IMG/VR virus record: IMGVR_UViG_3300042564_000974
Coordinates: 1 to 64,000 of that record
Strand: one strand, 5' to 3'
From: a virus
Length of the DNA: 64,000 bases
A program made the translations under genes and the position numbers. Under the pieces are notes generated by a model that saw only the letters and a program-made list of their open reading frames with translations, did no database searches and had not been told where the DNA came from. Below are positions 4,616 to 62,452 of this stretch, in pieces (position 1 is the first letter of the stretch; the number at the start of each line of letters is the position of its first letter).

Positions 4616-4621
4616 ATTTTA
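4616..4621 (-). promoter_or_regulatory. Candidate leaderless promoter -10 (TAAAAT)
   Basis: Minus-strand GTAAAAT followed by six bases and the ATG at 4609. This spacing would put the transcription start at or next to the ATG. No ribosome site is present and no clear -35 was found. Confidence 0.5.
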
Positions 4622-4627
4622 CTTCAT

Positions 4628-5125
4628 TTAACGCCAGCGTGGAGCGAGAGTTTTTAATTGACTTCTACGCTGAGGGCTAATCTGTTGAGCCTGACCCTCT
4701 TCATTACCACGGGGGATACCACGGGGACCGACCTTGCCGTCATTGGTGAGGCGCACAGGCTCTGCCCCAACTGGAGCAAACTTGAGACCCTGAGCCTCAT
4801 ACTGGAGACCTGTGTACTTGCCAAACTCTTCAGGCCAAAAGTAATCACCTGTATTGATTCTTTCACCTTTGTGAACGCCACGGCTGTACTGGCGAGCGTT
4901 CATACGGCTCAGAGTGCCGAGAACCTTGTCTTGTCGGCGGTTAGACGACATTGTTCCGAGGTAACCATCAGGGTAGGCGGTGTCTACTGAGGTGCGGTTA
5001 CCCGACATGAGTTGGTCTTTAGACGAACGGTAGTACGGAGATGGACCATAACCATTTGTAGGGTCAGAGTTTGGTGCAGAGGATGCGTTACCCCATGTAC
5101 CAAATGATGGTGTCTGTTGTGCCAT
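4628..5125 (-). CDS. Hypothetical protein, Tyr/Gly-rich
   Basis: A 165-aa protein. The N-terminal third is low-complexity (Ser, Asn, Gly, Tyr). The centre contains MNARQYSRGVHKGERINTGD and an aromatic stretch DYFWPEEFGKYTGLQY; the end is basic (PQRRSQLKTLAPRWR). No known domain. It is joined to the 49-aa gene upstream by TAATG. Context and composition would fit a minor virion protein. Confidence 0.55.
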   Translation of the reverse strand: MAQQTPSFGTWGNASSAPNSDPTNGYGPSPYYRSSKDQLMSGNRTSVDTAYPDGYLGTMSSNRRQDKVLGTLSRMNARQYSRGVHKGERINTGDYFWPEEFGKYTGLQYEAQGLKFAPVGAEPVRLTNDGKVGPRGIPRGNEEGQAQQISPQRRSQLKTLAPRWR

Positions 5126-5274
5126 TACATCATCCCGCCTGCTGAAAATCCGCCTATGAAGCCACCTTGACCATTGCCAGTTGGCTCAACAGGACGGGCA
5201 GAGCGTTCCTTTGCTTTCTTTCGTACATATCGTTGTTGTGTACGGGACTTTGAGCGTGGGTGTTTAGTAGTCAT
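5125..5274 (-). CDS. Very small basic protein (49 aa)
   Basis: A 49-aa open frame, easily missed because of its size: a basic N-terminal half (MTTKHPRSKSRTQQRYVRKK) followed by a Gly-rich end (GGFIGGFSAGGMM). It starts within the last codons of the preceding gene (11-base overlap) and ends with a TAATG junction to the next, so both borders fit the local coupling pattern. The charge suggests nucleic-acid binding. Confidence 0.55.
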   Translation of the reverse strand: MTTKHPRSKSRTQQRYVRKKAKERSARPVEPTGNGQGGFIGGFSAGGMM

Positions 5275-5536
5275 CACCATTATAGAAAGATTCTGTAATG
5301 TCTTCTGAGCCTTTTTCTGGTTGGTACTTGTTCAAACTTCCACCCTCAAACATGTTGGGTTGGTTCTTGATAGTTCCCCAGTGTGCGCCACCTGCGCTGA
5401 CAATGTGCATGTCACCTTGTTGGTTTCGGAATACACGACCACCCTGTTCAACCATACGCATAGCCTCGCCACCCCAGTTGGGTTGTTTGGATTGACCTTG
5501 TGGTCGGAATACAGGTTGACCTTTAAAGGAAGGCAT
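5264..5536 (-). CDS. Small hypothetical protein, MPxFxG type (1)
   Basis: A 90-aa protein beginning MPSFKGQPVFRPQGQ; the neighbour upstream begins MPLFRGMRVNRN, so the pair share a short N-terminal motif. A compact middle (GGRVFRNQQGDMHIVSAGG) could be a small beta unit. Function unknown. Confidence 0.55.
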   Translation of the reverse strand: MPSFKGQPVFRPQGQSKQPNWGGEAMRMVEQGGRVFRNQQGDMHIVSAGGAHWGTIKNQPNMFEGGSLNKYQPEKGSEDITESFYNGDDY

Positions 5537-61400: not shown

Positions 61401-61724
61401 ACCTGTCGCACCTTTAGAAACAGTAAGGACCCAAAACAAAGTGTTGGTTGGCTCTACACCCGTGTTATTGGCAATAGCGACATAAGCAGAGCCAGCGTAG
61501 CCAACAACATCTTTGGGGATATAAGAAACAGTAGATGACCAAGCGCCACGATAAACAAAAGCAGGGGGTCCTTGAGGACCTGACGCACCCGTGGGGCCTG
61601 TAGGACCTACAACACCCGCAGGTCCACCCACACCAGGGTCATGTATCTCAAGGGTATCTGTCTTTGTATTAGTGACAGTAACCGTTTTGTATGGTGTTTT
61701 ATGGATTTCTACTGAATCGGTCAT
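58437..61724 (-). CDS. Giant collagen-like tail fibre
   Basis: 1095 aa from the ATG at 61724 (ATGA overlap with the upstream gene); the longer start at 61784 is unlikely. N-terminal docking part, then a CBM-like module ([19 protein letters not shown] ... FWVLTVSKG), a long collagen tract (~residues 100-430), a globular unit with [20 protein letters not shown], a C1q-like beta sandwich ([19 protein letters not shown]), a second collagen tract (~750-990) and a beta-rich tip. It should form a long trimeric fibre for adsorption. The collagen tracts contain GPTGATG and GLTGATG triplets. Confidence 0.85.
58755..59475. repeat. Collagen codon-repeat tract 2
   Basis: About 720 bp of nine-base Gly-X-Y units encoding the C-terminal collagen section of the giant fibre. 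Highly repetitive; open reading frames on the opposite strand here are translations of the same repeat. Confidence 0.8.
60432..61425. repeat. Collagen codon-repeat tract 3
   Basis: About 1 kb of Gly-X-Y units encoding the N-terminal collagen section of the giant fibre, with interspersed GIQG and short ASTVAG units. Confidence 0.8.
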
Positions 61725-62440
61725 ACTGGGGGCACAGAGGTTGAAGGCTCTACAACAACCTGCCCCTGCGAAATGCTTGACCAATCACCAGCACTATCTT
61801 TTACGAATAGGTCAAATGAATAGGAGCCAGCAGGGATACCATTGGTGTCAGAGATATGGATTTCTAGCGTGTAACCTGCCTTAGGCGCAATGTACCCACG
61901 CTTGTTAGAAGGGCTTAGGGCGATAATAGTTGACTCACTTGGAGCAGTTGAGAACCAGCGGAGGTCAAGGACGGTGGTTCCAGAAGTGTTCTTTGCCTGC
62001 ATGAAAGCATCAGTGACAGTCAAGATGTTGCCATCAGAATCTTTCCATGTGTAGGACTGGCGGAAGTCTGTATATTTCTTGAAACGGATTTCCATAGCGA
62101 GAGCGTCCTCCAGAGGCGTAATGTTGTCTAGGGCAGATACTGTAATTGTACCTTTTGAAATCATTGTTTGGATACCCTTAACAGTTGCAAGGACATCATA
62201 AGAAAGTTCACCGAGTGGTAAATCTTGTGTTTCTTCTGCTGTTAGGCTTAACTCCACCCCACGCTCAGTAGTAATAGTGGTGGTAATCTCGGCTACAGTC
62301 AAATCACCTGTCTTGATGTAAGCACGGGCATCAGTAGGGGCATACAAACGGCGTGTTCGTCTATCCTTAATGATAAGCAACCGTTCCCACGGTAATCCCC
62401 GTGTGAGACTGTATTTAATTGTCTGAGCCTGATAAGACAT
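61721..62440 (-). CDS. Two-domain tail-fibre/baseplate adaptor protein
   Basis: A 239-aa protein made of two similar beta units: [20 protein letters not shown] ... [16 protein letters not shown] and [20 protein letters not shown] ... [17 protein letters not shown]. Both follow the plan of BppU-type N-terminal modules in phage fibres. It probably attaches fibres to the baseplate. No ribosome site; a GTAGAAT hexamer six bases upstream of the ATG makes it a leaderless candidate. Confidence 0.65.
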
Positions 62441-62446
62441 GTATCT

Positions 62447-62452
62447 ATTCTA
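62447..62452 (-). promoter_or_regulatory. Candidate leaderless promoter -10 (TAGAAT)
   Basis: Minus-strand GTAGAAT, six bases, then the ATG at 62440. It matches the TANNNT spacing rule and lies between two genes. Confidence 0.5.

What the first reader, a model, noticed from the sequence alone, without database searches (positions are those of the whole stretch)
4616..62452. A recurring leaderless promoter pattern: GTANNNT exactly six bases before the ATG
Reading all gene starts by eye, seven have a TANNNT hexamer exactly six bases before the ATG and lack a usable ribosome site: 4609, 21917 (plus strand), 45853, 46169, 52558, 53100 and 62440. The hexamers are TAAAAT four times, TATAAT, TAGTAT and TAGAAT, and six of seven have G immediately before. 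A fixed TANNNT has a chance of about 1 in 64 per start, so about 1.6 would be expected among some 100 starts. They sit in gaps, while other starts are coupled or carry AAGGAG. Leaderless mRNAs with this geometry are common in actinobacteria. No -35 box was seen.
Basis: partly seen in the sequence, partly recalled or inferred. Interest (0 to 1): 0.7.

Follow-up and report, generated by a model that had tools for sequence, protein, structure and literature searches.

The report
Leaderless gene starts in an actinophage
This phage of (most likely) actinobacteria starts about a dozen of its genes with a promoter placed so that the messenger RNA should begin at the start codon itself, a habit already known from such bacteria, and related phages show the same promoter with and without a normal ribosome-binding leader.

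Summary
In detail: all seven sites are as described. In this genome alone the plain TANNNT count is only moderately significant. Across 202 loci of relatives, one vote per protein family, a refined box sits at spacing 6 in 25 families against a mean of 0.98 at other spacings, at SD-less starts; at SD-led starts the box gathers at 24-32 nt. T4 has none at six among 95 starts with gaps. Orthologues of 45853 and 53100 carry the box at exactly 6 or at 24-32 nt with an SD between: one promoter, with or without leader. The box is TRnGGTAnAAT with no -35, an extended -10. WhiB genes in 17 of 20 records point to actinobacterial hosts; the window's record and its sister lack the sigma domains searched. 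Best reading: leaderless promoters read by host sigma-A, a new member of a known kind. No transcript was mapped.

The parts
4616..4621 (-). -10 box TAAAAT (G before it), six bases before the ATG at 4609 (gene 4250..4609, 119 aa)
   Evidence: no relative other than the sister contig found
21905..21910 (+). -10 box TAAAAT (G before it), six bases before the ATG at 21917 (gene 21917..22084, 55 aa, head of the + strand group)
   Evidence: kept in L239 (98% identical protein), not in the two more distant kinds of upstream region
45860..45865 (-). -10 box TATAAT (G before it), six bases before the ATG at 45853 (gene 45536..45853, 105 aa)
   Evidence: box present in 74 of 74 relatives examined, 5 at six and 69 at 24-32 nt
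46176..46181 (-). -10 box TAAAAT (G before it), six bases before the ATG at 46169 (gene 45873..46169, 98 aa); its TAA is also the stop of gene 46179..47318
   Evidence: TANNNT at six in 11 of 12 hits (window's sister included), at seven in one
52565..52570 (-). -10 box TAGTAT (G before it), six bases before the ATG at 52558 (gene 52424..52558, 44 aa)
   Evidence: TANNNT at six in 5 of 6 distinct upstream regions; gene not called by my program
53107..53112 (-). -10 box TAAAAT (C before it), six bases before the ATG at 53100 (gene 52573..53100, 175 aa)
   Evidence: of 87 orthologues 15 leaderless, 23 leadered at 26-30 nt, 23 coupled, 26 unclassed
62447..62452 (-). -10 box TAGAAT (G before it), six bases before the ATG at 62440 (gene 61721..62440, 239 aa)
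   Evidence: TANNNT at six in 16 of 27 distinct upstream regions and at seven in 3, down to 53-55% protein identity; 8 have neither
62632..64000 (-). part inside the window of a gene whose likely start is record position 64083 (GTAAACT, six bases, ATG; 483 aa), outside the window
   Evidence: my program placed the start at an inner ATG, 64029
6948..6953 (-). box TAAAAT (C before it), 29 nt before the AAGGAG-led start 6918: leadered form of the same promoter type
44869..44874 (-). box TAAACT (G before it), 32 nt before the SD-led portal start 44836: leadered form
52477..52482 (-). box TAAAAT (C before it), 24 nt before the SD-led start 52452, inside gene 52424..52558: possible leadered form

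Best explanation
The sites are extended -10 promoters (TRnGGTAnAAT, no -35) recognised by the host's sigma-A RNA polymerase. They lie so that the -10 hexamer occupies -12 to -7 and transcription begins at the A of the start codon. The mRNA then has no 5' leader and no ribosome site, and is translated by the leaderless route known from actinobacteria. They serve as heads of transcription units at gene joints; many other genes are coupled or SD-led, and promoters of the same type also occur 24-32 nt before the ATG with an SD leader. In relatives the same promoter occurs in both forms. Shown by sequence: motif, spacing, lack of SD, conservation, two distance classes. Inferred: the transcription start, the polymerase, the mode of translation and the host.
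For: Motif and spacing. 202 relatives' loci, 395 families: refined box TA[ATG]A[AC]T at six in 25 of 164 families with SD-less starts, mean 0.98 at other spacings; ATNNNA and TTNNNA show no peak at six; 23 against 0.91 after removing overlaps with upstream stops. Out of sample: 65633 and 64083, three of 39 starts in 20.8 kb absent from the record. T4 control 0 of 95 starts with gaps, 1 of 167 in all. Orthologues of 45853: box in 75 of 75, at 6 in six, at 24-32 in 69; of 53100: 15 at 6, 23 at 26-30. Promoter logo without -35; T-17 in 20 of 25 sites with gaps of 40 nt or more. WhiB in 17 of 20 records. Precedent: TANNNT about 12 bp upstream marks leaderless genes in Actinobacteria (PMC3160421, passages).
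Against: No transcript data. Own-genome TANNNT count alone is weak: 45 of 500 shuffles reach it at some spacing. The absence of the box at 4-10 nt from SD-led starts is partly by construction, since the SD fills that space. Spacing 7 is also raised. The promoter at 4609 has no relative to check and that at 21917 is kept only in near-identical phages. In the 53100 family 26 of 87 upstream regions could not be classed. The only match in sequenced genomes is a MAG labelled Chloroflexi, whose 18 called genes show none at six. In BRock only 3 of 22 SD-less starts with gaps are at six, one of them at a portal start that the record annotates 30 nt further upstream.
Confidence: 0.92

Rival explanations
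1. Chance: AT-rich gene joints and upstream stop codons (TAA, TAG) make TANNNT common near starts.
For: Own-genome count alone is borderline (45 of 500 shuffles reach 7 at some spacing); at 46169 the box includes the upstream stop.
Against: Peak at six in 25 families against 0.98 in relatives, 23 against 0.91 without stop overlaps; new sites in unseen sequence; T4, richer in TANNNT upstream of its starts (mean 5.16 per spacing over 167 starts), has 1 at six.
Confidence: 0.02
2. The boxes are promoters, but read by a phage-modified polymerase (a phage sigma factor or a WhiB-type factor) rather than by plain host sigma-A.
For: Uniform box; WhiB genes in 17 of 20 records, two in the sister contig; cultured Nanopelagicales phages carry whiB and a sigma-70 factor (PMC10202952, abstract).
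Against: Sigma-70 region 2 in 0 of 15 records, region 4 in 1 of 15, neither in the window's record nor in the sister; the hexamer is an ordinary bacterial -10.
Confidence: 0.12
3. The box is a translation or regulator signal rather than a promoter, and transcription starts further upstream.
For: No 5' end was mapped; some sites lie at tight joints where read-through from upstream is likely (gap 9 or 14 nt in 24 of 79 distinct sites).
Against: The same box is found 24-32 nt upstream of SD-led orthologues, where it cannot act at the ribosome, and its form TRnGGTAnAAT is that of an extended -10.
Confidence: 0.04

Closest known systems
Bacterial 'TA-led' leaderless genes (Zheng et al. 2011, PMC3160421; passages read)
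   Same: TANNNT about 12 bp before the start codon, no SD, frequent in Actinobacteria; replacement of SD-led by TA-led starts between orthologues
   Different: There in cellular genomes; here in an uncultured phage group, with the promoter itself kept while the leader comes or goes
Leaderless transcripts of mycobacteria, about 14% of genes (PMC7148126; passages read)
   Same: Leaderless and leadered genes side by side in one genome
   Different: There transcription starts are mapped; here they are inferred. Host here unknown
Putative leaderless promoter of mycobacteriophage Adephagia gene 90 (PMC11373665; one passage read)
   Same: Leaderless start predicted in an actinobacterial phage
   Different: One gene there; a recurrent class here
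Extended -10 (TRTG-type) promoters of Gram-positive bacteria (recalled, from no call)
   Same: T at -17, purine at -16, G at -14, no -35 needed
   Different: -15 is not fixed as T here; G at -13 is favoured
Streptomyces phages of Borockvirus (BRock and kin)
   Same: Best hits for portal, terminase, RecA and PolA; BRock also has boxes at six
   Different: 57% protein identity or less; BRock has few such starts

Membership tests
Bacterial leaderless (TA-led) genes | TANNNT at about 12 bp from the start codon, in excess over other spacings | tested here: met
   25 of 164 families against a mean of 0.98 for the refined box
Bacterial leaderless (TA-led) genes | No SD at these starts | tested here: met
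   9 of 9 own sites without an SD 3-11 nt from the ATG
Bacterial leaderless (TA-led) genes | Transcription start at the start codon | not testable with these tools
   needs 5' end mapping
Extended -10 promoter | T-17, purine at -16, G-14 upstream of the hexamer | tested here: met
   logo of 60 thinned sequences; T-17 in 59 of 79 distinct sites
Extended -10 promoter | T at -15 (TRTG form, recalled) | tested here: not met
   -15 is mixed
Extended -10 promoter | No need of a -35 element | tested here: met
   at most 0.16 bits near -35 in 60 thinned sequences, 0.27 at -37 in one per family; need itself not testable
Phage of actinobacteria | WhiB gene | tested here: met
   17 of 20 records, two in the sister contig, none in the window's incomplete record; of 14 control genomes only Corynebacterium rings
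Genus Borockvirus | Close identity to Streptomyces phage BRock | tested here: not met
   portal 53-57%, terminase 46%, RecA 44%, PolA 34% at best; no megablast match of window 1-25000

The most novel reading that the evidence does not exclude
The promoter-start unit is a modular gene joint. Promoter and translation start are compressed into about 17 bases that can even reuse the previous gene's stop codon (gap 14 or 9 nt in 24 of 79 distinct sites), so a new gene can be attached by its ATG alone. At one joint a nearly identical stretch of about 80 nt with a hairpin and the box is followed by three different genes in this phage and six related loci, with identity ending at the -10 box. Such phages would use leaderless starts to swap genes, and gain or lose SD leaders to retune them.
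Probability: 0.25. Interest if true: 0.6.

Novelty: new member of a known kind. Interest (0 to 1): 0.4.

Why it matters
It gives a usable gene-start rule for a large uncultured phage group (328 stretches encode a relative of its portal in IMG/VR), where SD-based gene finding can miss or misplace starts: my own SD-weighted caller did not call 52558 and put 64083 at 64029. Orthologues that keep one promoter with and without a leader are natural experiments on what a 5' leader does.

Tried and rejected
Hairpins as a general partner of these promoters: rejected. The 50 nt before the box fold no better than the matching stretch before coupled genes (mean z -0.39 of 55 against -0.38 of 70), though 3 of 9 own sites (21917, 64083, 65633) have strong hairpins. 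A -35 element: none seen; of the window's sites in 44001-64000 the sigma-70 scan listed only 46169 (9 of 12 matches) and found fewer promoter-like sites overall than in shuffles (14 against 26.7). Rfam: nothing above gathering in the window; one weak hit below its gathering score (E 0.44) near 64083. Host by genome match: the one hit is a contig of a MAG labelled Chloroflexi (L280); I weigh it below WhiB and the nearest named phages but have not disproved it, and leaderless genes are reported from some Chloroflexi too (4 of 12 genomes, PMC3160421). The bump of TANNNT at spacing 11 (6 in the own genome) I attribute to T-17 A-16 together with the T at -12. One search used a pattern too long to be informative and served only to identify the record. 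Literature: searches showed no paper on a leaderless class in freshwater actinophages; the library holds open-licence papers only, so this is no proof of absence.

Rows left out: for the loci of two contigs taken as the window's own phage were left out (5 of the 207 loci L030-L236), and loci L237-L279 were not used. In one search, 9 of 83 family members were dropped because no portal was called in the same locus or the locus was already in. In one search the 26 unclassed rows were not counted in the changes; 'leadered' there meant SD score 2 or more and a box 12-45 nt away. 52558 and 64083 were added by hand.

Full report
What the window is. The window is the first 64000 bases of a 70157-base IMG/VR virus record, a tailed phage with portal, terminase, baseplate wedge and PolA genes. 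A sister contig of 83630 bases (IMGVR_UViG_3300042559_000515, G003) is 99.9-100% identical over the 2.2 kb of DNA compared and 100% at five proteins; it adds 20.8 kb that the record lacks. Portal, terminase, RecA and PolA all find Streptomyces Borockvirus phages best, at 57% identity or less. WhiB genes occur in 17 of 20 records of the group, two in G003, none in the incomplete window record; of 14 control genomes only Corynebacterium rings. An actinobacterial host is therefore likely. The contrary hint is a relative in a MAG labelled Chloroflexi.

The observation. All seven sites are as described. The gene caller that I wrote scores codon usage, start codon and SD and does not look at TANNNT. 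Over its 108 starts TANNNT falls 7 times at spacing 6, mean 1.49 elsewhere; 45 of 500 shuffles reach 7 at some spacing; all 2677 ATGs show no excess. With the refined box [GC]TA[ATG]A[AC]T there are 44 occurrences in the record, 8 of them exactly 6 nt before one of 109 starts, where 0.034 is expected. That box was shaped after looking, and 64083, one of the eight, was added by hand, so this figure is descriptive only.

In the 6 kb beyond the window: 65633 (GTATAAT) and 64083 (GTAAACT, 483 aa), the latter called by my program at an inner ATG, 64029. In the 20.8 kb of G003: 39358 and 40018 (GTAAACT) and 55608 (GTACTAT; GGAG stands two bases before its ATG); there 3 of 39 starts have TANNNT at six against 0.20 per other spacing. 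A + strand block of that region, 25 called genes between 42445 and 53121, has an SD of score 3 or more at 22 and no TANNNT at six.

Relatives. 202 loci, 2,068,597 bases, 2938 starts, 395 protein families, one vote per family per spacing. At starts with a gap of at least 7 nt and no SD (691 starts, 164 families), TANNNT is at six in 34 families (mean of others 6.93; 22 at seven) and TA[ATG]A[AC]T in 25 (mean 0.98; 11 at seven). At SD-led starts with such gaps (685 starts, 96 families) TANNNT is at 4-10 in no family, partly because the SD fills that space, and is commonest at 27-31; the refined box gathers at 24-32. Control patterns ATNNNA and TTNNNA show no peak at six. With boxes overlapping the upstream stop removed, 23 families remain against 0.91. 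T4 has none at six among 95 starts with gaps and 1 of 167 in all. BRock, over 100 kb, has 3 of 22 SD-less starts with gaps at six: GTAAACT and GTATAAT at annotated starts, and one at a portal start that the record annotates 30 nt upstream.

One promoter, two kinds of start. For the gene starting at 45853, 74 relatives and the window all carry GTA[TC][ACT]AT within 60 nt of the start: 6 at exactly six, 69 at 24-32, none between; on the portal tree this needs at least 2 changes. For 53100, of 87 orthologues 15 are leaderless at six, 23 have the box at 26-30 with an SD, 23 are coupled to the gene before and 26 could not be classed; at least 5 changes between leaderless and the leadered or coupled states. 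An AAGGAG-type SD before the orthologous ATG in the leadered relatives also supports these two start codons. For 62440, 16 of 27 distinct upstream regions have TANNNT at six, 3 at seven and 8 neither, several of the last at starts placed by a fallback rule; it is kept down to 53-55% protein identity. For 46169 it is at six in 11 of 12 hits, for 52558 in 5 of 6 and for 65633 in 3 of 3 distinct regions. For 21917 it is kept in near-identical phages only, and 4609 has no relative.

The promoter. Sixty thinned leaderless sequences give T(-17) a(-16) n G(-14) G(-13) TAnAAT and at most 0.16 bits near -35. T stands at -17 in 21 of 35 sites with gaps up to 17 nt, 18 of 19 with gaps of 18-39 and 20 of 25 with gaps of 40 or more, so it is not merely the upstream stop; -16 is mostly a purine. 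In tight joints the upstream stop is reused as part of the promoter (gap 14: 14 of 79; gap 9: 10 of 79). This resembles the extended -10 of Gram-positive bacteria (recalled), which works without a -35. Sigma-70 region 2 was found in 0 of 15 records and region 4 in one (G011), neither in the window's record nor in G003, so host sigma-A is the likely reader. A spacing of six puts +1 on the A of the ATG, by the usual numbering of -10 boxes.

Known or new. Leaderless genes with TANNNT about 12 bp before the start are described for Actinobacteria, including replacement of SD by TA signals between orthologues (PMC3160421, passages). Mycobacteria express about 14% of genes so (PMC7148126, passages). 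A putative leaderless promoter is drawn for mycobacteriophage Adephagia gene 90 (PMC11373665, one passage). The present case is a new member of that kind; that one promoter persists through gain or loss of an SD leader in phages is its most informative part.

A side finding. The joint before 64083 holds a stretch of about 80 nt, nearly identical in this phage and in L113, L114, L116, L117, L120 and L129, with a strong hairpin (z -3.8) and the box; identity ends at the -10. What follows differs: here a 483-aa protein whose N-terminal part resembles the family-10 protein that stands further downstream in L120, elsewhere proteins of family 99 (L113, L114, L116, L129) or family 78 (L117, L120), which share no more than a 9-13-residue N-terminal match with each other. 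Eight IMG/VR contigs hold its core, all among those already met. It looks like a place where genes are gained and lost behind a fixed promoter. Hairpins are not a general feature of these sites.

Noticed in passing
record G000 64084-64190 (L029), also L113, L114, L116, L117, L120, L129: Nearly identical intergenic stretch of about 80 nt with a hairpin and a leaderless promoter, followed by different genes in different relatives.
   Followed up: partly
G003 38658-59447 (L289, L290): 20.8 kb of the same phage absent from the window's record, with both WhiB genes; the record is therefore incomplete.
   Followed up: partly
G003 40592-42444 (L289): About 1.85 kb without a called gene between divergent gene groups.
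   Followed up: no
leaderless joints in the relatives' loci: The upstream gene's stop codon often doubles as part of the promoter (gap 14 or 9 nt in 24 of 79 distinct sites).
   Followed up: partly
window 52573..53100 (-): The protein has an SxHxxGxAxD stretch like M15 peptidases (motif recalled); no Pfam or PHROGs match. Possibly an endolysin.
   Followed up: no
record G000 67536-70151 (L029): Neighbouring genes are preceded by near-identical coding ends (ATGGAAGGnTTnGT...), suggesting tandem paralogues.
   Followed up: no
window 21867-21916: Strong hairpin (z -5.8) between divergent genes, just before the leaderless start 21917.
   Followed up: no
L280: A relative of the portal (75% identity) lies on a contig of a MAG labelled Chloroflexi; host signal or binning error.
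   Followed up: partly
L288 (G011 6115-6273): One related record encodes a sigma-70 region 4 domain (188-aa frame); 14 other records searched do not.
   Followed up: no
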